From contig OZ038383.1 in the NCBI GenBank assembly GCA_964036045.1, positions 66,717,725 to 66,781,724 of the forward strand: a stretch of DNA of 64,000 bases. The letters are read 5' to 3'. Both the position numbers and the translations under genes were made by a program. The notes beneath the pieces were generated by a model, which worked only from the letters and a program-made list of their open reading frames with translations, had not been told where the DNA came from and did no database searches. Origin of the DNA: Eutreptiella sp. 'Long Island Sound 2002'. Its lineage: Eukaryota > Euglenozoa > Euglenophyceae > Eutreptiales > Eutreptiaceae. Positions 6,101 to 55,497 of the stretch are shown piece after piece; the first letter of the stretch is position 1; every line of letters starts with the position of its first letter.

Positions 6101-6662
6101 ACTCCTGGCTGGGTTTCGCTGCCGGTGGTGGTGGGCGGTCCCCGCCACTCCTGGCTGGGGTCCGTTGGCGGCGGTGGTGTGTGGTGTGTGGTGTGTGGTG
6201 TGTTGTTGGGGTCCCTCGCCACTCCTGGCGGAGGTTCCTGTGTGCTACTCCCCGCCACTCCTGGCTGGGCTTCGCTGCCGCTGGTGGTGGGCGGTCCCCA
6301 CCACTCCTGGCTGGGGTCCGCTGGCGGCGGTGGTGTGCGTGCTTTGCTTGGCCGGGTCGGGCGGGCCGGCCTCCCGGGCGCATTCTGGTGCGCCTCACCT
6401 TTTCCTTTGGCCGCTTTGTCTTTCTGCTTTGCTTGGCCCCCTCCGGGCTGGGGTTGCCCCTCTCTCTTTTGCTGCTGTTGCCGTTCCGCGTTGGCTGGGG
6501 TTTGTGGTGTGTGGGTTGGCTGTTGCCTGGCACCTGTTCGTGTGCCGTGGTTCGTTGCGTGTTGTGCGCGCTCTCCGGGTTTGTGGCACCCGGCGGCCGT
6601 CGCTGCTTGGCACCTGTCCGTGTGCCCTGGTTGTGGCCGGCGGCGTGCCTCTCTGGCGTGCC
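3173..6662 (-). mobile_element. 3.5-kb GC-rich insertion in element A integrase, probably non-LTR type
   Basis: The insertion splits the element A integrase and is flanked by a perfect 14-bp direct repeat, TCGTCGATGTGCAG (3159-3172 and 6663-6676). Insertion plus one repeat is 3504 bp, so the frame is kept on excision. Read on the minus strand it ends in (CTAC)n next to the target duplication. A simple-repeat 3' tail with a target duplication of variable length is typical of SINE/LINE-like elements, hence the strand and class assigned. No reverse transcriptase or other protein is recognisable. The inside is dominated by a tandem array (4351-6340). It could instead be a rearranged fragment of unknown class. 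Confidence 0.7.
4351..6340. repeat. Tandem array of about 156-211 bp units
   Basis: The landmark CCCTCGCCACTCCTGGC, or close variants, recurs at 4351, 4532, 4720, 4915, 5103, 5291, 5479, 5690, 5846, 6057 and 6213. Spacings are 181, 188, 195, 188, 188, 188, 211, 156, 211 and 156. The last four spacings form two copies of a 367-bp dimer (211+156), a higher-order repeat. Within a unit, CCGCCACTCCTGGCTGGG and GTGTGTGG-type sub-repeats recur. The sequence lacks stop codons in all three plus frames, which explains the ORFs of more than 1,000 codons seen there. Confidence 0.9.
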
Positions 6663-30303: not shown

Positions 30304-31436
30304 GAATGCACGCTTCTTTGCGTGGCCCCTCGAGTTGGGGCTGGGGCCTCATCATCCACGCTTTGTTGTGTGGCCCCTCGAGTTGGGGTTCGGGACTCAC
30401 AATCCACGCTTTTTTGCGTGGCTTCTCGAGTTGGGCTTAGGGACTCACAATCCACGCTTTTTTGCGTGGCCCCTCGAGTTGGGGTTAGGGACTCACAATC
30501 CAAGCTTTGTTGCGCGAGCCCTCGAGATCTGGTTAGGGACTCACAATCCATGCTTTGTTGCGTGGCTCCTCGAGTTGGGGGTAGGGATTCACAATCCACG
30601 CTTTGTTGTGTGGCCCCTCGAGTTGCGGTTAGGGACTCACAATCCACGCTTTGTTGCGTGGCCCCTCGAGTTGGGGTTAGGCACTCGCAATGCACGCATT
30701 TTTGCGTGGCCCCTTGAGTTGGGGTTAGGGACTCACAATCCACGCTTTTTTGCGTGGCCCCTCGAGTTGGGGTTAGTGACTCACAATCTACGATTCTTTG
30801 CGTGGCCCCTCGAGTTGGGGTTAGGGACTCACAATCCACGCTTAGTTGCGTCGCCCGTCGAGATTGGGTTAGGGACTCACAATGCACGCATTTTTGTGTG
30901 GCCCCTACATTTGCTGTTAGGGGCTCACAATCTACACTTTTTTGCGTGGCCCCTCGAGTTGGGGTTAGGGACTCACAATCCACGGTTCGTTGCGTGGCCC
31001 CTCCAGTTGGGGTTACGGACTCACAATCCACGCTTTGTTGCGTGGCCCCTCCAGTTGGGGTTAGGGACTCACAATCCACGCTTTGTTGCGTGGCCCCTCG
31101 AGTCGGGGTTAGGGACTCACAATGCACGCATTTTTGCGTGGCCCCTGGAATCGGGGTTAGGGACTCACAATCCACGCTTGTTTGCGTGGCCCCTCGAGTT
31201 GGGGTTAGGGACGCACAATCCACACTTTCTTGTGTGGCCCCTCGAGTTGGGGTCCGGGACTCACAATCCACGCTTTTTTGCGTGGCCCCTCGAGTTGGGG
31301 TTAGGGACTCACAATCCACGCTTTGTTGCGTGGCCGCTCGAGTTGGGGTTAGGGACTCACAATCCACGCTTTGTTGCGTGGCCCCTCGAGTTGGGGTTAG
31401 GGACTCACAATCCACGCTTCTTTGCGTGGCCCCTCG
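30304..31436. repeat. 48-bp satellite array, left block (about 24 units)
   Basis: Consensus landmarks per unit: TTAGGGACTCACAATCCACG, then CTTTGTTGCGTGGCCCC, then TCGAGTTGGGG (48 bp in total). The period is seen directly, for example 31321 to 31369. Units vary at TTTGTT/TTTTTT, CTCGAG/CTGGAG and TTAGGG. The block ends at the element D insertion and the phase resumes at 51370. Confidence 0.96.
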
Positions 31437-32253
31437 AGAAAAGTTTATAGTGTTTTCAGCACTGTGTTTTTGCTTCTCCTGCTGCTTGTTGTTGCTGTAG
31501 GGTGTCCTGCTGCTGGTTTTGGATGATGAAAAGCTTTTGTTTGTTGAAATACAGTAAAGCCAACTCAATCCAGGATAGCCCAAGCCAATAGTATGCAAGG
31601 AGAAGGTAATTCAGGATCAAAGCATGAAAGGCTGCAGTGTAAACAGTGAAAGATGATTAGGTATTCACAGAAACTGCAACTCAGGATACAAATGAATGCA
31701 TATTCACAGAGATAGCTGAAATGTTTTGGGAAAAGAGTTAGAAAACTGCCTCAGGATCACTCTCTCTCCATAGTGCCATCTTAGGAGATGTGCACTCTTT
31801 GTTTTGGGTCCCATATGTGCTGAGGTGGCATTGTATGTGGCGATGAGGTCACTGCCATGTCACATGGGATCTTCCTACTTAGTTGGGATCTTCCTACTTA
31901 GTTAGGCTGACCAGGAATTGAACCCAGGACCTCTCAAAAAGAGGTGCCTAACCCCCTATGGTGCATACCACTAGGGCAGATAAGTATTCATGGAAAAACA
32001 TAGATAAATTCATAGGCTCTACCTTAGGTATGTCAGTGCTCAGTCAACTCAGGAAAAGATGTTTTACTTCTGATTGAAAGGGGATTAAGGGGTCCACTCC
32101 ATATCCTGATTGGGTGTTTGGTTCCATAGGTCAAAATGTGTTCTCACCACTTTTGGCTGGACCAATACTAAGATAAAAATGCATGGATGCTCAGTGCATC
32201 TCTAATACAACTAGAGTATGTCCCAAAGCAATGGAAAAGCACTTTTTCTTACT
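31437..32253 (-). repeat. 3' LTR of element D
   Basis: Copy of 50553-51369. On the minus strand it begins AGTAAGAAAAAG next to the PPT and ends CTTTTCT. It includes a tRNA-like segment and a 20-bp tandem duplication (GGGATCTTCCTACTTAGTT-type, about 31868-31907). Confidence 0.9.
31907..31984 (-). other. tRNA-like, Pol III promoter-like segment in element D LTR
   Basis: On the minus strand there is an A-box-like TGCCCTAGTGG. It is followed by an arm ACCTC-TTTTTGA-GAGGT (a 5-bp stem with a 7-nt loop whose anticodon position is TTT) and a perfect B-box GGTTCAATTCC. The acceptor stem does not pair, so this is not a functional tRNA gene. It looks like a tRNA-Lys-derived SINE head captured by the LTR. 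Confidence 0.55.
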
Positions 32254-37500: not shown

Positions 37501-38123
37501 TCCCCGTCCTTGTACTCCAGGACTAGGCCAGCGTCGATACATTCTTGTATCTGTCGCTCAATCTCGTCGGCCTGCTCTTTAGGAGCTGGATAGGGTCTCC
37601 TCCGGATCTTGTGACCCACGAACTCGGGTTTCAGCTTGAGGTCCATCTGTACCAGCTTGTCGCATGAGGCTGGAGGGGGTAGTTCTCCGAACACCTCCAG
37701 ATAGGTCCTTATCAGCTTTTGTACCCGCGGGTCCAGTACCTTGATCTTGTCCTCCATGTCCTCGTCGGAGTGTAAGTTGCTTGCCCCTTGAATAGACGTC
37801 GGGAGGTGGTCCTCCACCAACTCTTCGCCCGCGGTAGCATCCTTCAGCCCTTGGTAGGCATACAGAAGGTCTTGCTCAACCATCTCCGGTGGACGATGGC
37901 AACATAGGCACGCTTTAGGGGGTTCACATACACATTCCTCCGAGAGGTCGTCCTCATCTGGGGTCCTCACATGGGCACCCCATACGCTCTTCATGAGCTT
38001 GAGATCTACCTCCCTTTGCCAGGTGGTGATCTTCTGTTCGAGGTCCTCCTTCAGTTGGGATAGGTCTCCCATACGTCCTTGCTTCAGTGGCCACGAGCTG
38101 CGGGTAGGCTTCGCGTAGCATAG
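34527..38123 (-). pseudogene. Element D pol, C-terminal part: RT, RNase H, integrase, chromodomain
   Basis: Open for about 1,200 codons; it is called a pseudogene only because the LINE separates it from the protease. RT: KRLVVDYGELNKK, KMDKRSGFWQVDL, MPFGVANAPALFQ and the catalytic HIDDV (near 37090-37105) with His in place of the usual Tyr/Phe. RNase H: LVTDASNVGGGGTLFQW and HHIQGVKNECADYISR. Integrase: zinc motif HESSGH...CPCRSC; Asp in LYVDYTEMP; Asp in NSDEDVRV; Glu in NPLCERQIRVLKENV. Chromodomain near 34640-34770 (FYLVKSVLRHRYRQGWRFLT, then EEATWEPFSAFV). The frame matches 46603-47952 once the LINE and one 18-bp duplication are removed. Confidence 0.93.
38106..38123. repeat. 18-bp target-site duplication, left copy
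   Basis: AGGCTTCGCGTAGCATAG, repeated exactly at 46603-46620 on the other side of the LINE. Confidence 0.93.
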
Positions 38124-38370
38124 TAACGGCAGCACACTCCGTCAGCGACACTTTCTGAGTGTCTATTTTTTTTCGATTGACCCTCAGCATTTTGTTGATG
38201 GATCCACCAGTAGTCCAGGCTATTCGGTGATTGGAGAAAATCCTGGGCTGTTCAAGTTCTGGAGCCTTTCCCGCAGTTTTCAAATCATCATCTCAATTCC
38301 CGAGTTCAAATCCACGCTCGCAATCTTTCAATTGACGCCAAGCCACCTTTTCGTTCATCCCGAAAACACC
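38124..38370 (+). other. AlkB-LINE 5' untranslated region
   Basis: 247 bp from the target duplication to the first in-frame ATG of ORF1. The ORF1 frame is open upstream to a GTG at 38227, so a non-AUG start cannot be excluded. An internal promoter would be expected here, but none is recognisable. Confidence 0.6.
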
Positions 38371-41082
38371 ATGAATTTCACCCTATTTGGAAGCTCCAAA
38401 GCCGCCGATGATGGCCTTTCAACGCTATTCAACTATTCTCCGTCACACCTCTTTCAAAAACACCAAGCCTCAAATTCGCCGTTGCAAACACGCTTTCCGT
38501 CACGCCAACTTGAAGCCATTGAGGGCAAAATATTTGACACACGCCAACGCATTTTCGTTCCCGAAGTCTACCGCCGACTACAAGACTACTCCGAGTTTTA
38601 CCTGGATGTGGAAGGCACCGATATTCAATCCGCCTTCGTTGGGAGCAACTCCACGGAAATTCTAGATCGAGGTAGGGTCTCTTCCGTTGCGCACAATAAC
38701 TACAACGAGCTCGAAAAGCTTTTGTTCAAGCACAAGCGTTTCTACCTAAAGCCGTATGAGTTGGACTATTCCCAAGCCGAAGCCAAGGAGTCTCCACCCA
38801 CCGCCACCCCGTGGGCTAAACAATTAAGAACCGTGCTAGATAAAGCCAAAGAAGAGAACAAAGACCTCAAAGGATGGTTCGTTATTCCGGCGTGGGACGC
38901 TCAAGTGGTTGCCGCCACCTTTCGCATGCTAGGCTCAACTTCCGCCCTTTTTCCTCTTCTTCCGTACATTTCTAGCGTGATATGTATGCACGGGGCGCAA
39001 CTCCGGGACGCCTACAAGGTCAAAAGGGACGGCAAAGACTCCTACGAGTTCCGCACGAGCGGCCATCAAACGATGCCGTATGTTGCCTTGCTCCTAAACA
39101 CCTCTTCCTTTGACGGGAGCCGATATGAAGACATCAATTTTAAGTTTGAACCTTTCCGCTTCGCCGCCAAGCACGCCCATCCAACGGTGCGAGACCTCCG
39201 GTTGCACAAAACACTACGTTTTGAGGTGAGCATAGAATTCCTTGATCACATTGAGCCTTCACCGCCGGAAGAGAGAGATAAAACTAAACCAAGGCAACGC
39301 AAAATTGGAGACGCCCGTGCTTTCATGAAGTTAATGAACGAAATGTTTGTCCCCGCGCTAGCAAACGTATCGGTGAACACCAAAAATGCCTACTACCCGT
39401 TTGGCCACATAGTCCCTTCCGAGAGCCCGCATTGGGCCTACTACCGGTTTGATTGGGAACTCCCATCTCGCTTTGCCGACGAGCTCATGTTTAAGGTCCG
39501 AGAGTGCGCCCAATTCCTCACCGGAGAACTCCTTGCAATGGACATGCACGCTTTGCCGACTACCGAAGTGTATCGAGCCGTGATCGCTAGGGACCGAAAG
39601 GAAAGAAACAAAGACCTACAAGCTCCGGAAATGCTCACCATGATGATCGCCAACCTGCCCGGTGGACGGGGCGCCTCACCGCCCCTAGGAGCGATGTTCC
39701 GGTCTAAAGATTCCTTGGTAGTGGCGATTGACACCACTCACGCGCCGTGCGACGTCATGAAGACCGGTGTCCAAACGTTAGCTATCCGCTTCTTCCACTC
39801 ATGCGGCATTGTCCTCTTTCATGGCATAGATGGGCAATTAGTGCGGTTCTCGTCACGATCCGACGGCAACGCGAGGTCCGCGCCTTCGGGCGCCCCCGAG
39901 CGAGCCCACGCGACGCCGGCCCCGCCCTCATACGACTCATCTAAGGCCCCGAAGACCGCCGTGCTCCTAGTGGCCCCAAGATCGGCGCACGCTCTCGACT
40001 TGCGCGTCCAAGCGGGGTTTCTTGGCCCGTACGTGTCGTTCGAGCCCACGCGGCCTCCCTACGAACACCAACAAGCCTACCTCGTGGTCTACGAAAAAGG
40101 AGAATCCGCGCTGCTAGCGCATGATTTCAAATATGGAGACGCTGCCTTTGCCCCACTACACCGCAACCTCATCGCCCTCGAGGAGATCCTCCCCGCTCAA
40201 GACCCGGATGTGGCCGAGCACGAGCAACCCATAGTGCAGCGCCTCCAAGCGGGAGCCGCCTTGGGGTCCACGGCCTTCGTGTCCCAACTTGTCACCGCCC
40301 TTCGTGAAAGGCCCGCTACGGGGCTGACTGAGCGCATCAGCGAGTGGAACGCGGCACCGGAGGACGCCGGCGCCGCTACGCCAACGCCGGGACCAAGCCG
40401 CATCGAAGAGATGTCCGAGACCAGCGTCCCGCTGCTTGCTCCACTAGGAGGCGAGGCGACCACCCTCCTACCCCCCGACCACGGTGCCCCCACCCCCGCC
40501 TCGGATATTCAAATCGACCCCCGCCTCCCCGCTGGTTTTTATTACGTCCGCGACGTATTCTCCGAAAGCCAAGAGGAAACGGTAAAAAAGATTCTCCACG
40601 ACAACACGTGGGAGAAGTACCACGGGCGCTCAGTCCAACACTTCGGCCACGCATACCTCGGCCCGAGCAAAGTCGCCGCCACGTCCCCCATCCCGGAAGA
40701 GTTTTCCTCCATCCTCCAAACCTACAATGCCGCGCTGGAGCGGCTAGGCCTCTCACACCCTCCTCCCAACCAAATCACGGGCACAATGTATCTCCCGGGA
40801 GAGGGCATCGGCTACCACGGGGACGACCCCTTGCTAGGCGACCCAGTGTCCATTTTTGGTTCCCAATCGGACACCACCATGTTCTTTAAGAACCCCTCCA
40901 ACGGGGACTCCTTTCGCATCCGCCTGTTTGCCCGCTCTCTCCTGGTCCTCACGGGGGCCGCACGCCATGAGTGGCACCACGGTATACCTCGACGGAGAGA
41001 AGACGAAGTGTTTGGGCTAACCGTCCCTCGTACCGTCCCTCGCCTCGCTCTAATCCTCCGACACATACCACAGGCAAGCTAA
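38371..41082 (+). CDS. AlkB-LINE ORF1: novel N-terminal region with C-terminal AlkB-like 2OG-Fe(II) dioxygenase domain (903 aa)
   Basis: First in-frame ATG at 38371. Residues 1 to about 550 are globular with no family I recognise (motifs YLKPYELDYS; GWFVIPAWDAQVV; YYPFGHIVPSESPHWAYYR). They contain none of the usual LINE ORF1 zinc knuckles or an obvious RRM. About 550-715 is Ala/Pro-rich linker. From about 719 (LPAGFYYVRDVFSE) to the end it matches the AlkB fold: iron-binding HGD (His816, Asp818, in GYHGDDP), distal His870 in RHEWHHGIP, and 2-oxoglutarate-binding Arg891 and Arg897 (PRLALILRHI, the R-x5-R of ALKBH-type enzymes). AlkB enzymes oxidatively remove methyl groups from N1-methyladenine, N3-methylcytosine or related bases in RNA or DNA. 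A role in repairing or de-marking the element RNA is inference. Confidence 0.9.
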   Translation: MNFTLFGSSKAADDGLSTLFNYSPSHLFQKHQASNSPLQTRFPSRQLEAIEGKIFDTRQRIFVPEVYRRLQDYSEFYLDVEGTDIQSAFVGSNSTEILDRGRVSSVAHNNYNELEKLLFKHKRFYLKPYELDYSQAEAKESPPTATPWAKQLRTVLDKAKEENKDLKGWFVIPAWDAQVVAATFRMLGSTSALFPLLPYISSVICMHGAQLRDAYKVKRDGKDSYEFRTSGHQTMPYVALLLNTSSFDGSRYEDINFKFEPFRFAAKHAHPTVRDLRLHKTLRFEVSIEFLDHIEPSPPEERDKTKPRQRKIGDARAFMKLMNEMFVPALANVSVNTKNAYYPFGHIVPSESPHWAYYRFDWELPSRFADELMFKVRECAQFLTGELLAMDMHALPTTEVYRAVIARDRKERNKDLQAPEMLTMMIANLPGGRGASPPLGAMFRSKDSLVVAIDTTHAPCDVMKTGVQTLAIRFFHSCGIVLFHGIDGQLVRFSSRSDGNARSAPSGAPERAHATPAPPSYDSSKAPKTAVLLVAPRSAHALDLRVQAGFLGPYVSFEPTRPPYEHQQAYLVVYEKGESALLAHDFKYGDAAFAPLHRNLIALEEILPAQDPDVAEHEQPIVQRLQAGAALGSTAFVSQLVTALRERPATGLTERISEWNAAPEDAGAATPTPGPSRIEEMSETSVPLLAPLGGEATTLLPPDHGAPTPASDIQIDPRLPAGFYYVRDVFSESQEETVKKILHDNTWEKYHGRSVQHFGHAYLGPSKVAATSPIPEEFSSILQTYNAALERLGLSHPPPNQITGTMYLPGEGIGYHGDDPLLGDPVSIFGSQSDTTMFFKNPSNGDSFRIRLFARSLLVLTGAARHEWHHGIPRRREDEVFGLTVPRTVPRLALILRHIPQAS

Positions 41083-41213
41083 CCCACGAAAGCCAGAGGG
41101 CCGGGTACCCGCCTCCTGCACTGTCCAGCCCCCTCTACCTGAACACAAAAGGGCCAAGATTCAGTGAACCACCGGCCCAGTCACGGCTTCCACCATCACA
41201 GGCAAGGGGCTAG

Positions 41214-44200
41214 ACGACGAGCTCACCTCGGCCGGGATACCGGCCGACCAAATTCAGCACTTTCTTTGCCTTAGCCAGCCCAGCCAACCCGGCTCCCCAG
41301 TGCCCCCCCAGCCCCCCCCTATCCCGCCCCCCCCCGAGATCCAAAACGCGCCTACGGAAGGGTTACCAACGGCCTCACCGCCCCCCCATACCCCTCCCTT
41401 CAGAACTGCGTTTTCTATCCCACAACTTGCAGAAGAAACCCATAGTGAGCAGCCAAATTCTCCGACACCTCAAGAACGACTTCGACATCCTCTTCCTCCA
41501 AGAAATCAATCACGCCCCCATCCTCCCCCACGTATACGCCTACGGTTCGGGCACTAAAGCCACCATCGTTTCGAATATCAGCCAAGACAAACACTCCAGA
41601 GGCGAGCATGGTTCCGTCTTGGTCTGTTCCCCCCGGCTCTCCCGCTTCGTTACCCCCCTTCCCCGACTAGATACAGAAGGGATGCTGGCGGCAGCCGTTC
41701 TCACTCTCCCGGGGGCCCCGCCCACCTTGCTGGTCTCGGTATACGCCCCAAGCACGGACGTCCACCGCTCAAAAATTGAAAACATCCTACGGCCACTCAT
41801 GCATCAGTATCCTAACCACGTCCTCGGTGGGGACACCAATTGCATAATGTGCCCTGAACTAGACGGATCGAACCTCCAAACGGACAACGAATGGCCGTGG
41901 CTTCGCAGACAGATCACGAGCGACCCGCCGCGCCTCATCGATACCTTTCGGCACTTTCACCCGACCGAGCGGTCCTTCTCCCGATACCCCACCCCGTACA
42001 GGGCAAGCAGTAGCCGCCTTGACCATATTTTGCTCTCCCCGGCGGCCTCGGAATTTTTTGCCCCCACCTCTGCAACCATCCAAACCGACGACAAAACGTC
42101 AGACCACCACCCAGTCACGTACACCTCTCAAGTCCCCCCTCACCCTTTTACCGAAGCTCCCACAACTAAGAGGAAAGTTTTCCGAAAACTGACGGAGCGG
42201 GAACGCTCCAAGCACCACGACTCCCTTGCCCCCCTGGCGCGGTGGTGCGAGTCTACCCTCCCCCGCTTTGAGTCCTTGTCCTCGGCGGACATCGAGCTTT
42301 TCACAGACGTCGTGCTGGAGGAAGTGGCGACCAGCTACCACAGTATCACCACGCCGTCACGCCCTACCTCCTCGGCTCTGGTAAAGAAAATCAAAGAGTC
42401 CCTGCAAACCCTGCCCCCCCCCAGCCATCCCAACTACCCCGCTTCCATGGACGCGCTCAACAAACTCGTCAAGGAGTGGGAAACCAAAGTGAACAAGGCC
42501 GCAACCACCAAAATCCATCGGTGCCTAGTGAGGAAAACTAGGATCAAACGCACCATCAACGAGGCGCTCAACCCCGTGGAACGAGGTGAAATAACACTGA
42601 AGCGCCCGGGCACCACACAGCTCGTCTCCACCCCCAAAGGTGTGGGCTCTATTTTCTCTTCTACACTCCTCACCCTGGGGGGCAGCCTCGAATACGCACC
42701 GCCGAACACTCTAGTGGATCGCCTACTCGCACACTCCCCCGCCTGCCCCGAACCCACAAAACACGGCCTCCTCCCTGACATTACCTGGGAATCGTTACGC
42801 AACACGCTTAAGAGGTCCAAGCCCAACAAGGCGGGGGGGCGGGACTTCACAAACAACTACACTTTGCACGTCTCCCCCCCCCCTATCCAACAATTCATTT
42901 GGAAGGTATGCAACTACTACCTCCACCGGCCGTTGCCCGAGAAATGGCTCGAAGCCAACATTATCTTGCTTTTTAAGAAAGGGGACGTGATGAACCCGGT
43001 AAATTACAGGCCTATAGCCTTGCTGAACAGCGTTTACAAAATAATTGCAACACACGCCAACCGAGAGCTACTGGCAGCGGCCATTGAACATTCCATCATA
43101 CACCCCACCCAGTTCGGCGGGCTTCCGAACCGCAGATGCCAGGACCACATTTTCAACCTCTTATCCACGTTTCGGGAATCGGTCGGTAGCTACAGCCTCT
43201 ACATTGATTTCAATAAGGCTTTTAACTCCGTCCCCCACACCACCCTCTTCACAGTTCTATCCCGCCTGAACTTTCCTACGCCCCTTGTAAACCTCATTCA
43301 ATCCTTGTACCGTGCCCCTCGCGACTTCCCAGTGGTGTCAGGTCAAACCCACTCCTCACACCTGCAAACCAGAGGCGTTCGGCAAGGATGCCCCATGTCA
43401 CCAATCCTTTTCTGCCTCTACCTGAATGTGCTCCTCTTCGCCTTGCCGTCCCACGTCACTGCACCCCCCTCCCCACACGAATCGGGCCACGCCTTTGTTG
43501 ACGACCTCCTCTATCGATCAGAGAATGGGGACCGCATACAGCAAGTTTTAAACTTCTTCGACACGGTCGCCAGGGAGTGGGGTCTAGACCTTAACCTCAG
43601 CAAAACCGAGATCCACGCTATGGGAACAGCTCCCCCCAGAACCTTCACCTCCCCCTCGGGCACCCCCCTGTCGACAACAAACCAAAAGACGGGGCAACCA
43701 CACAATTGCTACAAATACCTAGGGGTATACATCTTCACCGCCAACCATGAGGCACAAACACTGGCATTGGCCAAGTCGGAAATACGCTCATTTTTCACAA
43801 CCCTCCAACCCCTCCAGCTCACCCTTTCGGAATACATTCTCTTGGTGAACGTCCAACTCATCCCTATTCTTTCCTACCGCCTCATGGCACACCCTCTGGC
43901 CCTGAACGAGTTGGGGGCCCTTCAGGCCATGATCTGGCAAAATGTTGCGCATGACCCCTCCCCGGACAGAGCCAACAGGATCTCCCGCCTCGTCTCCCCT
44001 AAGGCCCGCTACACCCCTCGCCACCAGGGAGGCTTAGGACTCCGCCACTTCACTTTTTCAATTTGCATGGCCCTGGTAAACACCGCAATAAGGTACCTCA
44101 ACGGAGACGGCCCGGCCTCGACAAACGAATCTTTTTCCGAAGCAATGCTCTCCACCACACGCAACCCAATCCAAGACACCATCATGGACGCATGCCACGC

Positions 44201-46214
44201 CATAGGCTTCCGATACCACAGCACCGGCCTCTGGGCCTCCTGCCCCCCCTCCCTTTTCCTCCCAAAAGAAAAAGTCCAGGTCCGGTTCCTAGCCACCAAG
44301 CCGGCACCACAATACAGCAAGTTCGGCAACAGATTAAAACGGACGCCCCAGGACCTGGGGTTCCACCTAGGTACAGTCACGGAAGTGCACTCAGAATCGG
44401 CCACACTCCAGTTTTCGGACGGCACCACCCACACCATCAAAAACCCCGGTCTCCGCCGCAACGAGAAAGAATACACCTTTCAAAACCCAGCCATTTCTGT
44501 CCTCCCTCAACTGGCGGGGCGCCACGAACTGCTCACCCCCCCCCTTCTTCACCCTCAAGAATACATCCTCAACCCCCCCCCCGGGCCATACAGCGGGGTC
44601 CTACTCGACTCGTCACTGCATGGCGAGCTGTACCGGCTCCCAGATGAACCTCACTCCCTTGACCCCGACGACCTCGAAGAATGGGGTTGTGAAGCAGCCC
44701 TTGCCCTCCTCCTCGCATCGTCCCCCGGCACGACATGGGTGTACTTGGATGGCTCAGCGGGCGCCTTGGGCTACGGATCGGCGGCCACCCTGTTTTTTCC
44801 AAATGGCTCCAGATGGGTACTGTGCCAAACGTCCCCGTACCAGTCATCAGAGGGATCGGAGTTCTGGGCCGCTATTATGTTCCTACGGTGGGCCCTTGCA
44901 TCTCACCCGCACCTCACCTTCGCCGTGCTAGGGGACAACCTCCACGTTATCACTGTTCTCTCTCCGAACACCCCCCCAGGCCTCCCATCACGCTCGCCAG
45001 CCGGCACGTGGGAATCCTCTCTCCAGTCCATTCAGGCCTCCCTACGCCCAGGGATGATCCAGGGTTGGGGGTGGATCAAGGGGCACGCCGGGTTCGTGGG
45101 GAATGAAATCTCAGATGCTTACTCAAAGTGGGCCGCCCACGTGATGGTCTGGGACCCCTCCCTCCTTCCCCCCCCCCCGATAGGGTGCATATCCAGGGGC
45201 CCCCTCCCAGTCATACACAAATTGACTACAACCTCAATCAAGCATCTCCTCCCTCGCCACAAACACGAAAACATCCACGCACCGTCCAGCTTCCATTTTT
45301 ACAATCACACTTCGTGGTTCAAAGGCCTCCCTTTCAAATGGTCCTCCGGAAATTTCAACATGGCGCCATTTGCTTTCCACGACGACTTGCGCCCTCGCCA
45401 TTGCCACGCTTGCCCCGACCCGCACCCGATGGATGTTATCTCTTTCGTCTCACACTGCCCAACGTGCGAACACCTGGTCCAATCCTACATTCAATGCTGG
45501 CGCCCCCCCTTCACCACGGTGGTGTCCCAATGGTGGTCCGCGACCACACACGTGGGGGAGAGACGCAATTTCGTCCGAGGGCTTGTTCCCATGACGCTGT
45601 ACACCAAACTCACAACCCCCCCCTCCGGCCGAAGAAAACCAGCACACTGTCACGACTTAAAACTCGCCCTGAAGGATCGTGTTCCCCTGCTCCTCAGCGC
45701 CCTATACCGCACGCTGGAATGGCTAAAAGACCACCCCCCCCCAGCCCCGCTCACCCCCCCTACGGGCCCCAACTCATGGGGACGCCCCTGGTCGCCCTAC
45801 AGCACGTCGCACACCGCCCAACAACGCCCCCCCCCCGCCTACCACCCTCCCCCCCCCCTCCCGGACAAAGTTGCACACAAGCCCCCAAAACGCCCCCGCC
45901 CCCCATCTCCTGCGGCACACACCAAAACTCGAAAACACGGCCGCCAGCCCCCAAGGCCCGTCCGGCCTCTATCACTGAAACGCGGTACCGCAAGTCAACC
46001 CCAGCCAGAGCCTCCGCCCCCCAAACGGCCGCTCACAATCAGGGACATGTTCAACCTCCCCCCCCCCCCTAGACCAGCACCCCCCCTCGCCGCCTCCGCC
46101 CCCATTTCCGCCCCTTCTCCTCGCATAACAAGGTACTTCGCACCAGCCCCCCCCTCCCCCGCGAGTACAAACTCACAATCGTCCTCACACTCGTCCAACG
46201 TGTCATCTCTTTGA
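41214..46214 (+). CDS. AlkB-LINE ORF2: APE endonuclease, reverse transcriptase, RNase H
   Basis: Frame open from after TAG 41211-41213, with no ATG before the enzyme. The APE domain starts with LRFLSHN (about 41406). It then has LFLQEIN, SVYAPS, GGDTNC, SRLDHIL and SDHHPV, so the catalytic Asn, Glu, Asp and His are present. RT (about 42930-43900): NYRPIALLNSVYK, RQGCPMSPILF and catalytic FVDD (near 43497). RNase H (about 44735-45165): YLDGSAG, SSEGSEFWAA, LGDNLHV and KGHAGFVGNEISD, all acidic residues and His retained. A Cys/His cluster (HCHACPDPH...HCPTC) follows. The tail from about 45735 is proline-rich. Upstream, a plausible N-terminus in the neighbouring frame (about 41168-41380) would join through the C7 run at 41381-41387, suggesting a 1-nt indel or re-initiation. 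Confidence 0.92.
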   Translation, partial: TTSSPRPGYRPTKFSTFFALASPANPAPQCPPSPPLSRPPPRSKTRLRKGYQRPHRPPIPLPSELRFLSHNLQKKPIVSSQILRHLKNDFDILFLQEINHAPILPHVYAYGSGTKATIVSNISQDKHSRGEHGSVLVCSPRLSRFVTPLPRLDTEGMLAAAVLTLPGAPPTLLVSVYAPSTDVHRSKIENILRPLMHQYPNHVLGGDTNCIMCPELDGSNLQTDNEWPWLRRQITSDPPRLIDTFRHFHPTERSFSRYPTPYRASSSRLDHILLSPAASEFFAPTSATIQTDDKTSDHHPVTYTSQVPPHPFTEAPTTKRKVFRKLTERERSKHHDSLAPLARWCESTLPRFESLSSADIELFTDVVLEEVATSYHSITTPSRPTSSALVKKIKESLQTLPPPSHPNYPASMDALNKLVKEWETKVNKAATTKIHRCLVRKTRIKRTINEALNPVERGEITLKRPGTTQLVSTPKGVGSIFSSTLLTLGGSLEYAPPNTLVDRLLAHSPACPEPTKHGLLPDITWESLRNTLKRSKPNKAGGRDFTNNYTLHVSPPPIQQFIWKVCNYYLHRPLPEKWLEANIILLFKKGDVMNPVNYRPIALLNSVYKIIATHANRELLAAAIEHSIIHPTQFGGLPNRRCQDHIFNLLSTFRESVGSYSLYIDFNKAFNSVPHTTLFTVLSRLNFPTPLVNLIQSLYRAPRDFPVVSGQTHSSHLQTRGVRQGCPMSPILFCLYLNVLLFALPSHVTAPPSPHESGHAFVDDLLYRSENGDRIQQVLNFFDTVAREWGLDLNLSKTEIHAMGTAPPRTFTSPSGTPLSTTNQKTGQPHNCYKYLGVYIFTANHEAQTLALAKSEIRSFFTTLQPLQLTLSEYILLVNVQLIPILSYRLMAHPLALNELGALQAMIWQNVAHDPSPDRANRISRLVSPKARYTPRHQGGLGLRHFTFSICMALVNTAIRYLNGDGPASTNESFSEAMLSTTRNPIQDTIMDACHAIGFRYHSTGLWASCPPSLFLPKEKVQVRFLATKPAPQYSKFGNRLKRTPQDLGFHLGTVTEVHSESATLQFSDGTTHTIKNPGLRRNEKEYTFQNPAISVLPQLAGRHELLTPPLLHPQEYILNPPPGPYSGVLLDSSLHGELYRLPDEPHSLDPDDLEEWGCEAALALLLASSPGTTWVYLDGSAGALGYGSAATLFFPNGSRWVLCQTSPYQSSEGSEFWAAIMFLRWALASHPHLTFAVLGDNLHVITVLSPNTPPGLPSRSPAGTWESSLQSIQASLRPGMIQGWGWIKGHAGFVGNEISDAYSKWAAHVMVWDPSLLPPPPIGCISRGPLPVIHKLTTTSIKHLLPRHKHENIHAPSSFHFYNHTSWFKGLPFKWSSGNFNMAPFAFHDDLRPRHCHACPDPHPMDVISFVSHCPTCEHLVQSYIQCWRPPFTTVVSQWWSATTHVGERRNFVRGLVPMTLYTKLTTPPSGRRKPAHCHDLKLALKDRVPLLLSALYRTLEWLKDHPPPAPLTPPTGPNSWGRPWSPYSTSHTAQQRPPPAYHPPPPLPDKVAHKPPKRPRPPSPAAHTKTRKHGRQPPRPVRPLSLKRGTASQPQPEPPPPKRPLTIRDMFNLPPPPRPAPPLAASAPISAPSPRITRYFAPAPPSPASTNSQSSSHSSNVSSL

Positions 46215-46602
46215 AAAAGCCACACTTACACATTTTCTCACGCCGACCCTCGACAGCCCTAGCGGCGCGATCAATCAGTACTACCACACTGGCACTCACC
46301 AGTCACTTCTGCAAATGAATCCCTCCCCCAAGCCACCCCCCGTGCTCAAGCCGTCATGCTCTAACCCCCAATCCGCAACCACACCGCCTTCGGGTATCAA
46401 GCGGAGACCCCGGCCTGCGGTTGTCTATAACGGGGCTGCCAAGTCTCTTTGAGATGAAGCAGACGAGGACAGCAACGTGCAGCGGTACTCAGCCCGCGAT
46501 TGAACTTGATTTCGGGCTCCCGCCCCTCCCCAAAAAAGCTTGGCGCGCAAGAGCCTTTCTCCCCGGCCTGGCCAGCCACAAAAGGCGCCGTTCAGTGCAA
46601 AA
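46215..46602 (+). other. AlkB-LINE 3' untranslated region
   Basis: 388 bp, no ORF. The last 38 bp (ending GCCGTTCAGTGCAAAA) are the part copied into element A, so this end contains the reverse-transcription start. Confidence 0.85.
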
Positions 46603-46620
46603 AGGCTTCGCGTAGCATAG
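46603..46620. repeat. 18-bp target-site duplication, right copy
   Basis: Exact repeat of 38106-38123. On the minus strand both copies encode LCYAKP in element D pol. Confidence 0.93.
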
Positions 46621-47952
46621 CTTTTTCGCCACCAACTTCCTCTTGGAATCCACATACTCCCTGAGCCTGGATCGAGGGTCCAGCTCTTCATCCACGGGGT
46701 CTTCCACCCTCATGGAGAGTAGGGGTTTTAGTGGGGCGACGTACTCGGCGTTCTCCACTTCTTCCACCGCAGTCTGCACGAAGAAGGCGTCGTGCTCAGT
46801 TTCGTCGTCGGAGTGGATAGAGCTAGGTAGCTCAGATAGTCCACACTCAGAGACTCCATCAGGAACAGGTACATGACAGGGAGAGTTGGGGGCGTTGGTG
46901 TCAGTCACGACGTACTCATCTCCTCCGGGTGTAGTTTCAACAGCATCTTGAGGTCGTAGACGATCCTTCAAGTCACCCAAGGCGAGTCCATCGCTTTCTC
47001 GTTGTATAGCCTGGACCAGAGTAGGGTCCAGGTCTTCCCAGGGGATGGTGGTAAGACTTCCGTCCACCACGCTGAGCATACTCCCCCATCCGGGCTTCCC
47101 AATGGGCGTCTTGCGTCCCAGAGGCACGTAGATGGCCTCATCAGGTAACCGCACAGAGCTGATAGTCAGCTTGTCAAGGAGGGTTCGCCAGTACTCGTTG
47201 CCCCCATGGGCTCCCCAATCGGGGGAACACAGGACCATACGGGAACGTTCCAAGGCCACCTTGGTCAGCACCTTCCCCAGTTCACTGAATCTGGGGTTCC
47301 CGTAGGCCATCCCGAAAGAGGGCCAGTAAAATTTGTAGCTGCAGTTCTTCCCCTTGCTGCAGTATAGGTCCAGTACATGCTGCTTGTCGCTGGCGAACAG
47401 TTCCACACTTAGGTCTTCTCGAGAGTAACCCAACTCCTTCAGACCTTGGTCTAGGACTTCCCCCAATAGTTGATAGTCCTCAGTTTTGGAGGCCGCCATC
47501 ATGTTCGAGGGCTCCTCCTTCGATAGTCTCAGGTAACTCGAGGTATGTTCCGACTGCTCCAGTGGCACAGACTCTCTGCCACTGCCGTGGTCCACGTACA
47601 GGAGGTAGGGCGCTTGCAGCGTCAGGGATTGTATCTGGGAGTGCTGCACGAAGAAGTCAGTACCCAGTACAAAGTCGAAGGCATCAGTGTCCATCACATA
47701 GAACCGATGGGCGATAGTCCTGGAGCCCATAGGTACCTCCACTTCGCAGTCCCCGCAGCTGTGCACCACATGTCCATCCCCCATCCGTATAGCGGCGGTG
47801 GTCATGGTGTTCTTCAGGCTCCCACAAGGTAAAATTTTCTTGGCCACTATCGATATTGTGGCTCCAGTATCCAGTACCCCCAGGTATTCACGTCCCCCTA
47901 GTCGGATACGTACCCAAAACACCAGGTCTTGGGTGCCACCAGAGCGTCCCCG
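46603..47952 (-). pseudogene. Element D pol, N-terminal part: aspartic protease and methyltransferase-like module
   Basis: Same frame as gag, directly after its UGA. The protease has YLGVLDTGATISIV (DTG) and the flap-side VLGTDFF. At about 47053-47457 lies the module also found in A and B: VELFASDKQHVL, FYWPSFGMAYGNPRF, MVLCSPDWG and the closing GWGSMLSVVDG. Here the methyltransferase motif IV reads NPRF rather than NPPF. An acidic linker follows to the LINE insertion after VAKKLCYAK. No internal stops. Confidence 0.9.
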
Positions 47953-50540: not shown

Positions 50541-50553
50541 CCTCTTGCTACCA
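50541..50553 (-). other. Primer-binding site of element D
   Basis: Minus-strand TGGTAGCAAGAGG, like the A/B site with one extra A. It adjoins the inner end of the 5' LTR, with 1-2 nt uncertain because the LTR termini are non-canonical. Confidence 0.72.
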
Positions 50554-51369
50554 GAAAAGTTTATAGTGTTTTCAGCACTGTGTTTTTGCTTCTCCTGCTG
50601 CTTGTTGTTGCTGTAGGGTGTCCTGCTGCTGGTTTTGGATGATGAAAAGCTTTTGTTTGTTGAAATACAGTAAAGCCAACTCAATCCAGGATAGCCCAAG
50701 CCAATAGTATGCAAGGAGAAGGTAATTCAGGATCAAAGCATGAAAGGCTGCAGTGTAAACAGTGAAAGATGATTAGGTATTCACAGAAACTGCAACTCAG
50801 GATACAAATGAATGCATATTCACAGAGATAGCTGAAATGTTTTGGGAAAAGAGTTAGAAAACTGCCTCAGGATCACTCTCTCTCCATAGTGCCATCTTAG
50901 GAGATGTGCACTCTTTGTTTTGGGTCCCATATGTGCTGAGGTGGCATGGTATGTGGCGATGAGGTCACTGCCATGTCACATGGGATCTTCCTACTTAGTT
51001 GGGATCTTCCTACTTAGTTAGGCTGACCAGGAATTGAACCCAGGACCTCTCAAAAAGAGGTGCCTAACCCCCTATGGTGCATACCACTAGGGCAGATAAG
51101 TATTCATGGAAAAACATAGATAAATTCATAGGCTCTACCTTAGGTATGTCAGTGCTCAGTCAACTCAGGAAAAGATGTTTTACTTCTGATTGAAAGGGGA
51201 TTAAGGGGTCCACTCCATATCCTGATTGGGTGTTTGGTTCCATAGGTCAAAATGTGTTCTCACCACTTTTGGCTGGACCAATACTAAGATAAAAATGCAT
51301 GGATGCTCAGTGCATCTCTAATACAACTAGAGTATGTCCCAAAGCAATGGAAAAGCACTTTTTCTTACT
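50553..51369 (-). repeat. 5' LTR of element D
   Basis: Partner of 31437-32253. It carries the second copy of the tRNA-like segment (51021-51100). A frame without ATG runs from this LTR across the PBS and ends just inside gag in another frame. Confidence 0.9.
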
Positions 51370-54300
51370 TGGGGATAGGGACTCACAATCCACGCTTTGT
51401 TGCGTGGCCCGTCGAGTTGCGGCTGGGGATTCACAATTCACGCCTTTTTGTGTGGCCCCTCGAGTTGGGGTTAGGGACTCAAAATGCACGCTTTGTTGCG
51501 TGGCCCCTCGAGTTGGGGTTAGGGACTCACAATCCACGCTTCTCTGCGTGGCCTCTCGAGTTGGGGCTGGGGACTCACAATTCACGCTTTTTTGCGTGGC
51601 CCCTCGAGTTGGGGTTAGAGACTCAGAATCCACCCTTTTTTGCGTGGCCCCTCGAGTTGGGGTTAGGGACTCACAAACCACGCTTTGTTGCGTGGCCCCT
51701 GGAATTGGGGTGAGGGACTCACAATCCACGCTTTGTTGCGTGGCCCCTCGAGTTGGGGTTAGGGACTCACAATCCAAGCTTTTTTGCGTGGCCCCTGGAT
51801 TTCGGGTTAGGGAATCACAATCCACGCATTTTTGCGTGGCCCCTGGAATTGGGGTTAGAGACTCACAATCCACCCTTTTTTGCGTGGCCCCTCGAGTTGG
51901 GGTTAGGGACTCACAATCCACCCTTTTTTGCGTGGCCCCTCCAGTTGGGGTTAGGGACTCACAATCCACGCTTTTTTGCGTGGCCCCTCGAGTTGGGGTT
52001 AGGGACTCACAATCCACGCTTTGTTGCGCGACCCCTCGAGATTTGGTTAGGGACTCACAATCCATGCTTTGTTGCGTGGCCCCTCGACACGGGATTAGGG
52101 ACCCACAATGCACGCTTTGTTGTGTGGCCCCTCTAGTTGGGGTTAGGGACTCACAATCCACCCTTCTTTGCGAGGCCCCTCGAGTTGGGGTTAGGGACTC
52201 ACAGTCCACCCTTTTTTGCGTGGCCCCTCGAGTTGGGGTTAGGGACACACAATCCACGCGTTGTTGCGTGGCCCCTGGAGTTGGGGTTAGGGACTCTCAA
52301 TCCACGCTTTTTTGCGTGGCCCCTGGATTTGGGGTTAGGGACTCACCATTCACACTTTTTTGCGTGGCCCCTCGAGTTGGGGTTAGGACTCACAATCCAC
52401 GCTTTGTTGCGTGGCCCCTCGAGTTGGGGTTGGGGAATCACAATCCACGCTTCTTTGCGTGGCCCCTCGAGTTGGGGCTGGGGCCTCACAAACCACGCTT
52501 TGTTGCGTGGCCCCTCGAGTTGGGGTTAGGGACTCACAATCCACGCTTTTTTGCGTGGCCCCTTGAGTTGGGGTTAGGGACTCACAATCCACGCTTTTTT
52601 GCGTGGACCCTCGAGTTGGAGCTGGGGCCTCACAACCCACGCTTTGTTGCGTGGCCCCTCGAGTTTGGGTTAGGAACTCAGAATCCACGCTTTTTTGCGT
52701 GGCCCCTCGAGTTGGGGTTAGGGACTCACAATCCACGCTTTTTTGCGTCGACCCTCCAGTTGGGGTTAGGGACTCACAATCCACGCTTTTTTGCGTGACC
52801 CCTCGAGATTTTGTTAGGGACTCACAATCCATGCTTTGTTGCGTGGCCCCTCGAGTTGGGGTTAGGGACTCACAATTTGCATTTGGGGTTAGAAACTCAC
52901 AATCCACGCTTTGTTGCGTGGCCCCTCGAGTTGGGGTTAGGGACTCACAATCCACGCTTTGTTGAGTGGCCCCTCGAGTTGGGGTTAGGGACTCACAATC
53001 CACGCTTTGTTGCGTGGCCCCTCAAGTTGGGGTTAGGGACTCACAATCGGAGCTTTTTTGCGTGGCCCCTGGATTTGGGGTTAGGTACTCACAATCAACG
53101 CTTTGTTGCGTGACCCCTCGAGATTTGGTTAGGGACTCACATTCCACGCTTTTTTGCGTGGCCCCTCGAGTTGGGGTTAGGGACTCACAATCCACCCTTC
53201 TTTAGGTGGCCCCTCCAGTTGGGGTTAGGGACTCACAATCCACCCTTTTTTGCGTGGCCCCTCGAGTTGGGGTTAGTGACTCACAATCCACACTTCTTTG
53301 CGTGGCCCCTCGAGTTGGGGTTAGTGACTCACAATCAACGCCTTGTTGCGTGACCCCTCGAGATTTGGTTAGGGACTCACATTCCACGCTTTTTTGCGTG
53401 GCCCCTCGAGTTGGGGTTAGGGACTCACAATCCACCCTTCTTTATGTGGCCCCTCGAGTTGGGGTTAGGGACTCACAATCCACCCTTTTTTGCGTGGCCC
53501 CTCGAGTTGGGGTTAGTGACTCACAATCCACCCTTTGTTGCGTGACCCCTCGTGATTTGGTTATTAACTCACAATGCACACTTCTTTGCGTGGCCCCTCG
53601 AGTTGGGGCTAGGGACTCACAATTCACGCTTTTTTGCGTGGCCCCTGGAGTTGGGGTTAGGGACTCACAATCCATGCTTTTTTGCGTGGCCCCTGGAATC
53701 GGGGTTAGGGACTCACAATCCACGCTATGTTGCGTGGTCCCTCAAGTTGGGGTTAAGGACTCACAATCCACGCTTTGTTGCGTGGCCCCTCAAGTTGGGG
53801 TTAGGGACTCACAATCCACGCTATGTTGCGTGGTCCCTCAAGTTGGGGTTAAGGACTCACAATCCACGCTTTGTTGCGTGGCCCCTCAAGTTGGGGTTAG
53901 GGACTCACAATGCACGCATTTTTGAGTGGCCCCTGGATTTGGGGTTAGGGACTCACAATCCACGCGTTTTTGCGTGGCCCCTCGAGTTGGGGTTAGGGAC
54001 TCACAATCCACGCTTTGTTGCGTGGCCCCTCGAGTTGGGGTACGGGACTCACAATCCATGCTTCCTTGCGTGGCCCCTCGATTTGGGGCTGGGACCTCAC
54101 AAACCACGCTTTGTTGCGTGGCCCCTCGAGTTGGGGTTAGGGACTCACAATCCACGCTTCTTTGCGTGGCCCGTCCAGTTGGGGTTAGGGACTCACAATC
54201 CACGCTTTTTTGCGTGGACCCTTGATTTGGGGCTGGGGCCTCACAACCCACGCTTTGTTGCGTGGCCCCTCGAGTTGGGGTTAGGGACTCACAATCCAGG

Positions 54301-55497
54301 CTTTTTTGCGTGGCCCCTCGAGTTGGGGTTAGGGACTCACAATCGACGCTTTTTTCGTGGACCCTCGAGTTGGGGTTAGGGACTCAAAATCCACGCTTTC
54401 TTGCGTGACCCCTCGAGATTTGGTTAGGGACTCACAATCCATGCTTTGTTGCGTGGGCCCTTGAGTTGGGGTTACGGTCTCACAATTTGCATTTGGGGTT
54501 AGGAACTCACAATCCCTGCTTTGTTGCGTGGCCCCTCGAGTTGGGGTTAGGGACTCACACTCCACGCTTTGTTGAGTGGCCCCTCGAGTTGGCGTTAGGG
54601 ACTCACAATCCACGCTTTTTTGCGTGGCCCCTCAAGTTGGGGTTAGGGACTCACAATCCACGTTTTTTTGCGTGGCCCCTGAAATTGGGGTTAGGGATGC
54701 ACAATCCACACTTTCTTGCGTGGCCCCTCGATTTGGGGTTAGAGACTCACAATCCACGCTTTTTTGCGTGGCCCCTCCAGTTGGGGTTAGGTACTCACAA
54801 TCCACGCTTTGTTGCGTGGCCCCTCGAGTTGGGGTTAGGGACTCACAATCCACGCTTTGTTGCGTGGTCCCTGGAGTTGGGGTTAGGGACTCACAATCCA
54901 CGCTTCTTTGCGTGGCCCCTCGAGTTGGGGTTAGGGACTCACAATTCACGCTTTGTTGCGTGGCCCCTTGAGATTTGGTTAGGGACTCACAATCCATGCT
55001 TTATTGCGTCACCCCTCGGAATTTGGTAAGGGACTCACAATCCATGCTTTGTTGCGTGGCCCCTCAACTTGGGGTTAGGAATTCCCAATCCACGCTTTGT
55101 TGCGTGGCCCCTCGAGTTGGGGTTAGGGACTCACAATCAACGCTTTGTTGCGTGGCCCCTCGAGATTTGGTTAGGGACTCACAATCCATGCTTTGTTGCG
55201 TGACCCCTCGAGTTGGGGTTAGGGACTCACAATCCACGCTTTGTTGCGTGGCCCCTCGAGTTGGGGTTAGGGACTCACAATCCACACTTTTTTGCGCGGC
55301 CCCTCGAGTTCGGGTTAGGGACTCACAATCCACGCTTTGTTGCGTGGCCCCTGGAATTGGGGTTAGGGACTCACAATCCACGCTTTGTTGCGTGGCCCCT
55401 CAAGTTGGGGTCAGGGACTCACAATCCACGCTTTTTTGTGTGGCCCCTCGAGTTGGGGCCGGGGCCTCACAATCCACGCTTTGTTGCGTGGCCCCTC
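51370..55497. repeat. 48-bp satellite array, middle block (about 86 units)
   Basis: Same unit as 30304-31436, resuming in phase after element D and ending at the element E insertion. It includes a shortened variant (CACAATTTGCATTTGGGG) at 52871 and again at 54481, 1,610 bp apart, within similar neighbouring units: a higher-order duplication. Confidence 0.96.

What the first reader, a model, noticed from the sequence alone, without database searches (positions are those of the whole stretch)
38124..46602. LINE retrotransposon carrying an AlkB-like RNA/DNA demethylase domain
ORF1 ends in a dioxygenase domain with HxD, distal His and R-x5-R all present, fused to an otherwise unknown protein. ORF2 supplies APE, RT and RNase H. 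AlkB domains are known in some plant RNA viruses, where repair or demethylation of viral RNA is proposed. In a LINE the domain could remove damage or host methyl marks that block reverse transcription, or erase RNA-methyl tagging of the transcript. I know of no described LINE family with this layout. Frame restoration and 18-bp duplications show that the domain is inside the mobile unit.
Basis: partly seen in the sequence, partly recalled or inferred. Interest (0 to 1): 0.88.

Follow-up and report, generated by a model that had tools for sequence, protein, structure and literature searches.

The report
Jumping gene carrying an AlkB-type enzyme
A very young, abundant LINE-type jumping gene in an unnamed 2.3-billion-base genome carries a conserved AlkB-family oxygenase domain at the end of its first protein; its catalytic residues are kept, so the element probably uses the enzyme to copy itself, but what the enzyme acts on is unknown.

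Summary
Window 38149-46602 (+) is a full-length LINE inside a Ty3-like LTR element, with an 18-bp target duplication. ORF1 (903 aa) ends in an AlkB-family 2OG-Fe(II) dioxygenase domain: PF13532 just above cutoff, PDB matches to S. pombe Ofd2 and ALKBH8 at about 5e-13, and the Fe/2OG residues present (Y807, H816xD818, H870, R891-x5-R897). ORF2 has APE, RT and a sub-threshold RNase H match. All 50 scored genomic copies (ranked by protein score) keep the ORF1 frame; 8 of 10 copies tested show 16-19-bp duplications. An older, now broken copy (88.6% DNA identity) has the same layout, with AlkB dN/dS 0.15. The domain is a selected part, not a passenger. "Demethylase" is unproven: the closest solved relatives are Ofd2 and ALKBH8, not m6A erasers. 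Captured AlkB domains are known in plant RNA viruses and an orchid Ty3/Gypsy element; seven literature searches listed none in a LINE. The RT falls in a 24-sequence clade without named members. Host, donor, substrate and presence in sister LINEs stay open, because the genome search answered only 2 of 43 requests.

The parts
38106..38123 (.). 5' copy of the 18-bp target-site duplication AGGCTTCGCGTAGCATAG
38124..38148 (+). 25 extra nt at the 5' junction, not seen before the shared start in the 29 other loci
38149..38370 (+). 5' UTR; shared element start CACTTTCTGAGTG (exact in 27 of 30 loci)
38371..41082 (+). ORF1, 903 aa; N-terminal ~700 aa match no Pfam family above its cutoff; proline-rich stretch before the AlkB domain
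40513..41079 (+). AlkB-family 2OG-Fe(II) dioxygenase domain (ORF1 residues 715-903); Y807, H816, D818, H870, R891, R897
41214..46214 (+). ORF2 (stop to stop, 1666 aa); no ATG codon before codon 157
41418..42107 (+). APE-type endonuclease domain (Exo_endo_phos, 35.6 bits)
42978..43730 (+). reverse transcriptase domain (RVT_1, 111 bits); IDFNKAFNSV and FVDD motifs
44733..45131 (+). RNase H-like domain (22.8 bits, below the 25.8 cutoff)
45402..45467 (+). Cys/His-rich motif CHACPDPHPMDVISFVSHCPTC
   Evidence: seen in the translation
46215..46602 (+). 3' UTR ending ...TTCAGTGCAAAA
46603..46620 (.). 3' copy of the 18-bp target-site duplication

Best explanation
This is an autonomous, recently active LINE that moves by target-primed reverse transcription. 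Its ORF1 protein has an N-terminal part of unknown kind and, at its C-terminus, an AlkB-family dioxygenase with a complete set of catalytic residues. Shown: the layout, the TSDs and A-tail, the near-identical copies, the catalytic residues and the purifying selection. Inferred: ORF1p binds the element's own RNA in the RNP, and the AlkB domain uses Fe(II) and 2-oxoglutarate to oxidise a mark on that RNA. The mark could be a methyl group that blocks reverse transcription or tags the RNA for host control; removing it would raise the yield of full-length insertions.
For: Domain: PF13532; Ofd2 at E 4.3e-13 with 35 of 81 identical, ALKBH8 at 5.4e-13 with 50 of 162 identical including the N-terminal RxVxHFG stretch. 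Catalytic set: Y-to-H, HxD, H-to-H and R-x5-R spacings equal those given for Ofd2 in PMC3175000 section 5; H to first R is 21 against 24. Retention: 50 of 50 scored copies cover residues 1-903 without a stop and 77 of 77 cover the whole of P0014, which includes the domain (overlapping set); 8 of 20 database hits read through to the C-terminus and all 8 keep the six residues. Selection: C9 copy, AlkB dN/dS 0.15 at dS 0.45, and 0.16 for residues 336-714; divergence at codon positions 1/2/3 is 9.0/4.2/26.5% for AlkB and 9.0/5.4/24.2% for ORF2 residues 69-436 with the endonuclease. Mobility: TSDs of 16-19 bp in 8 of 10 copies tested. Precedent: an orchid Ty3/Gypsy AlkB demethylates m6A RNA in vitro (PMC9289625, abstract and passages).
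Against: No activity, substrate or RNA binding was tested. The closest solved relatives are not m6A erasers, and Ofd2 is reported to interact with histones. The Asn before the core Tyr of AlkB (NxY, recalled) is Thr here (T805). Both structure predictions failed (mean pLDDT 31.9 and 25.8), so the fold is not confirmed. Searches ranked hits by protein score, so their intact frames and the pN/pS of 0.05 are biased. In the C9 comparison AlkB is the most diverged part of ORF1 at codon positions 1 and 3 (ORF1 1-335: 5.4/2.1/17.7%). Of 20 database hits, 12 lack a complete in-frame AlkB region, and one of these (P0012) has N at 818; three of the 8 complete ones (P0003, P0004, P0006) are nearly identical to the window copy.
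Confidence: 0.5

Rival explanations
1. The domain is an active dioxygenase but acts on something other than the element's RNA: host tRNA or mRNA (as ALKBH8 does on tRNA; recalled) or chromatin proteins at the target site (suggested by Ofd2), favouring translation, integration or escape from silencing.
For: The best solved relatives are Ofd2 and ALKBH8; Ofd2 interacts with histones and its 2OG turnover is stimulated by them (PMC3175000 abstract).
Against: Similarity to a subfamily does not fix the substrate; LINE ORF1 proteins usually act in cis on their own RNA (recalled); 43% identity over 81 aa is far from orthology.
Confidence: 0.25
2. The AlkB fold serves only as an RNA-binding or structural module of ORF1p; catalysis is not used.
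For: RNA binding alone would be useful to an ORF1 protein, and no activity has been shown.
Against: All six Fe/2OG residues are kept in 8 of 8 database proteins that read to the C-terminus, with dN/dS 0.15 across the domain.
Confidence: 0.12
3. A hitch-hiking host AlkB fragment trapped recently in one copy or subfamily, without function.
For: 12 of 20 database hits are frameshifted or cut short in or before the domain.
Against: The domain is in all 50 scored copies and, collinear and without an indel in the domain, in a copy 88.6% identical in DNA, with constraint like that of the endonuclease.
Confidence: 0.03

Closest known systems
Orchid (Phalaenopsis) Ty3/Gypsy elements with an AlkB (2-ODD) ORF, PMC9289625 (abstract and 12 passages seen)
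   Same: A retrotransposon that captured an AlkB-family domain, at the C-terminus of an additional ORF, and kept it through amplification; that enzyme demethylates m6A RNA in vitro.
   Different: LTR element against a LINE; that domain is reported to be close to m6A RNA demethylases, this one matches Ofd2 and ALKBH8 best among solved structures; here it is part of ORF1 itself. The two were not compared by sequence.
AlkB domains of plant RNA viruses (Alphaflexi-, Betaflexi-, Closteroviridae; as cited in PMC9289625)
   Same: A replicating RNA with a built-in AlkB domain; RNA demethylation in vitro is reported for the virus proteins.
   Different: No reverse transcription; not compared by sequence here.
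S. pombe Ofd2 and ALKBH8
   Same: HxD...H, Tyr and R-x5-R set; closest solved sequences.
   Different: Cellular proteins of another domain order; 43% and 31% identity over the aligned parts only.
Esterase of non-LTR retrotransposons (PMC3905857, seen in a search listing only)
   Same: An enzyme domain carried by non-LTR retrotransposons, in ORF1 by the listing's abstract start.
   Different: An esterase, not a 2OG dioxygenase.

Membership tests
AlkB family of 2OG-Fe(II) dioxygenases | profile match above the curated cutoff | tested here: met
   PF13532 32.2 bits (whole ORF1) and 34.5 bits (domain) against 31.2; a narrow margin, backed by the PDB matches
AlkB family of 2OG-Fe(II) dioxygenases | HxD...H iron ligands, core Tyr, C-terminal R-x5-R | tested here: met
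   H816, D818, H870, Y807, R891, R897; kept in 8 of 8 relatives that read to the C-terminus
AlkB family of 2OG-Fe(II) dioxygenases | double-stranded beta-helix fold with nucleotide lid | tested here: inconclusive
   AlphaFold2 mean pLDDT 31.9 and 25.8 from shallow alignments; N-terminal RxVxHFG stretch aligns with ALKBH8
AlkB family of 2OG-Fe(II) dioxygenases | Fe/2OG-dependent oxidation of methylated bases | not testable with these tools
   needs an enzyme assay
m6A erasers (ALKBH5/FTO/plant ALKBH9-10 type) | closest sequence relatives within that group | tested here: inconclusive
   15 PDB matches to E = 1, none named ALKBH5 or FTO; best are Ofd2, ALKBH8, ALKBH6; no tree of the AlkB family could be built
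non-LTR retrotransposon (LINE) | APE endonuclease plus RT in ORF2, no LTRs | tested here: met
   domains; repeat search of 37601-47400 shows no long direct repeat at the element's ends, only the 18-bp TSD; RNase H below cutoff in this copy, above in P0025
non-LTR retrotransposon (LINE) | variable-length TSDs, A-tail, common 3' end at many sites | tested here: met
   8 of 10 fetched 3' ends give 16-19-bp TSDs; in 2 of 10 the tail was not in the fetched stretch
a named LINE clade (I, Tad1, R1, Tx1 and others) | RT groups with that clade | tested here: inconclusive
   24 of 97 RT rows form a clade (100/100, stem 1.02) apart from Xenopus Tx1 and the six other named rows; no reference set of all clades was at hand

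The most novel reading that the evidence does not exclude
A LINE lineage has built a working AlkB dioxygenase into its ORF1 protein, a capture independent of those in plant RNA viruses and orchid Ty3 elements and from another AlkB subfamily. The LINE uses it during its own replication, erasing base modifications from its RNA or modifying host RNA or chromatin. The RT clade it sits in is itself undescribed.
Probability: 0.45. Interest if true: 0.8.

Novelty: new variant of a known kind. Interest (0 to 1): 0.62.

Why it matters
If active, this would be another type of selfish RNA replicon that carries its own AlkB, besides plant RNA viruses and an LTR retrotransposon. It would strengthen the idea that modification of RNA bases is a barrier which mobile elements evolve to overcome. 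Because the element is present in many near-identical copies, point mutants of the active site in a retrotransposition assay would test directly whether RNA modification limits LINE mobility.

Tried and rejected
Structure prediction of the AlkB domain (A2, 5 rows) and of whole ORF1 (A3, 14 rows) gave mean pLDDT 31.9 and 25.8; no fold search was run on them.

A scan of viral contigs with the AlkB domain confirmed no relative. A protein search with the AlkB region found 10 proteins among 1106 candidates, all of this ORF1 family and all already; its length limits exclude short cellular AlkB proteins.

The 30-copy polymorphism ratio (74 synonymous, 12 nonsynonymous variants; pN/pS 0.05; 9 and 1 in the AlkB part) is not used as proof, because the copies were ranked by protein score; the C9 copy comparison is.

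Passenger-gene and chance-motif readings were rejected.

Not achieved: whether sister LINEs (P0025, RT 63% identical) carry AlkB, the host's own AlkB genes, the host's identity. The genome search answered 2 of 43 requests.

Full report
What is there. The window lies in a 2.28-Gb, 2205-contig genome without a name. At 38149-46602 on the + strand is a LINE. It sits between perfect 18-bp duplications (38106-38123, 46603-46620) inside a Ty3-like LTR element on the - strand, whose 817-bp LTRs (31437-32253, 50553-51369) differ at one position and whose pol ORF has RT and RNase H matches and integrase matches below their cutoffs. The LINE is therefore younger than a very young LTR element. 120-nt flanks joined without the insert have one stop-free frame.

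Mobile unit. Of the 30 loci cut out (the window copy among them), 27 have the start CACTTTCTGAGTG exactly, after unlike flanks; L002 has one substitution in it, and L011 and L029 differ in their first bases. For 10 copies, all + strand hits, I fetched 601 bp around the expected 3' end: 8 end in TTCAGTGCAAAA(n) followed by a 16-19-bp exact repeat of the sequence before the 5' end (lengths may include tail A's); in 2 (L004, L014) the tail was not in the fetched stretch. The window copy has 25 extra nt before the common start. This is the anatomy of target-primed reverse transcription (established knowledge of LINEs).

Proteins. ORF1 is read from the ATG at 38371 and is 903 aa. Its residues 1-716, scanned in three overlapping pieces with E up to 10, gave only a DUF4768 match at E 0.16-0.28, far below cutoff. 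Residues 771-878 match PF13532 at 32.2 bits (cutoff 31.2), the isolated domain at 34.5 bits. Against the PDB the domain matches S. pombe Ofd2 (E 4.3e-13, 35 of 81 identical), ALKBH8 (5.4e-13, 50 of 162 identical) and ALKBH6 (4.8e-10); a DNA 6mA demethylase, ALKBH7 and ALKBH3 come only at E 0.055-0.65. Y807, H816, D818, H870, R891 and R897 correspond to the residues that PMC3175000 section 5 assigns to iron and 2-oxoglutarate in Ofd2 (Y123, H132, D134, H186, R210, R216); spacings are equal except from the distal H to the first R (21 against 24). ORF2 has Exo_endo_phos (35.6 bits), RVT_1 (111 bits) and an RNase_H match just below cutoff.

Is the domain a working part? One search scored 50 of 3400 first-look candidates; all 50 cover residues 1-903 without a stop, at 99-100% identity. 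One search, with the diverged P0014 as query, scored 77 of 3043; all 77 cover the query without a stop, and the two sets overlap. Both are biased, since hits are ranked by protein score. In the 5.8-billion-protein set, 20 relatives were found, two of them standing for clusters of 163 and 121 sequences. Of the 20, 8 read through to the C-terminus (one, P0010, with a shifted inner stretch; three nearly identical to the window copy), and all 8 keep the six residues; 12 are cut short or frameshifted in or before the domain, and one of these, P0012, reads N at position 818. The better test is a copy on contig C9, 88.6% identical in DNA over 4374 aligned positions with the same 5' end and the same order. 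It is itself broken (a stop and a 4-nt deletion in ORF1, two single-base deletions before the endonuclease in ORF2). Even so, AlkB dN/dS is 0.15 (dN 0.067, dS 0.453), against 0.16 for residues 336-714. Divergence at codon positions 1, 2, 3 is 9.0, 4.2, 26.5% in AlkB and 9.0, 5.4, 24.2% in ORF2 residues 69-436, which hold the endonuclease; ORF1 1-335 is lower throughout (5.4, 2.1, 17.7%); the 5' UTR differs at 24 of 222 sites. So the domain was present before these lineages parted and has been held about as firmly as the endonuclease.

Relatives. A search with the AlkB region returned only this family (10 proteins). A search with the RT returned 101 proteins: P0023 and P0024 are this element, P0025 is 63% identical, and P0026-P0045 and P0047 are 36-51% identical, none with a name. 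I tried to place 102 RTs in a tree; 5 were dropped because no usable RT stretch was cut out. Of the 97 left, 24 including this one (three of the 24 being this element) form a clade (100/100, stem 1.02) away from Xenopus Tx1 and the six other named rows. Of the 24, 15 have FNKAFNSV exactly and 20 have FIDD or FVDD. I had no reference panel of LINE clades, so I do not name it. Whether the sisters carry AlkB is unknown. That one search did not find one hints that they do not, but it is weak evidence, as that search needs shared five-residue words and similar length.

Mechanism. Shown: a mobile LINE with a conserved AlkB-family domain in ORF1 that has a complete set of catalytic residues. Inferred: the domain is active, rides in the RNP, and oxidises a modification on the LINE RNA. 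PMC9289625 (abstract and 12 passages seen) reports in vitro m6A demethylation by an orchid Ty3/Gypsy AlkB and cites RNA-virus AlkB proteins with in vitro RNA demethylation. Against a simple m6A story: none of the 15 PDB matches is named ALKBH5 or FTO, and Ofd2 is reported to interact with histones (PMC3175000 abstract). Action on host RNA or chromatin is therefore a serious rival.

Novelty. Seven searches of open-access full text (listings seen, capped; one search found no paper) list no LINE with an AlkB domain; subscription papers, Repbase and Dfam were not searched. AlkB capture by mobile RNA elements is a known kind; a LINE ORF1 with one appears to be a new variant.

Noticed in passing
41214-41682: ORF2 has no ATG before codon 157 (41682), which lies inside the APE domain (residues 69-298); in this window copy a start would have to be non-AUG, by re-initiation or by recoding. 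A database copy (P0024, cluster of 372) is called from an internal codon that reads GTG here.
   Followed up: partly
42978-43730 and P0023-P0047: The RT belongs to a tight clade of 24 RTs without names, 15 with FNKAFNSV in box A and 20 with FIDD/FVDD in box C; possibly an undescribed LINE clade.
   Followed up: partly
31437-32253 and 50553-51369: LTRs of the interrupted Ty3-like element differ at 1 of 817 positions, so it inserted very recently; 48-bp satellite arrays flank it on both sides.
   Followed up: partly
30305-31438, 51369-55497, 58180-64000: Large arrays of a 48-bp satellite whose unit holds a short hairpin-like stretch (CCACGCTTTTTTGCGTGG).
   Followed up: no
38124-38148: 25 nt at the 5' junction of unknown origin; their first 14 nt occur once in the window.
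   Followed up: partly
40819-40821: The residue between the iron ligands is Gly in this copy but Arg (P0005, P0008, P0010, P0012) or Lys (P0014, P0016) in diverged relatives.
   Followed up: no
4325-6339: A G/T-rich tandem repeat of about 188/376 bp with strong AT skew.
   Followed up: no
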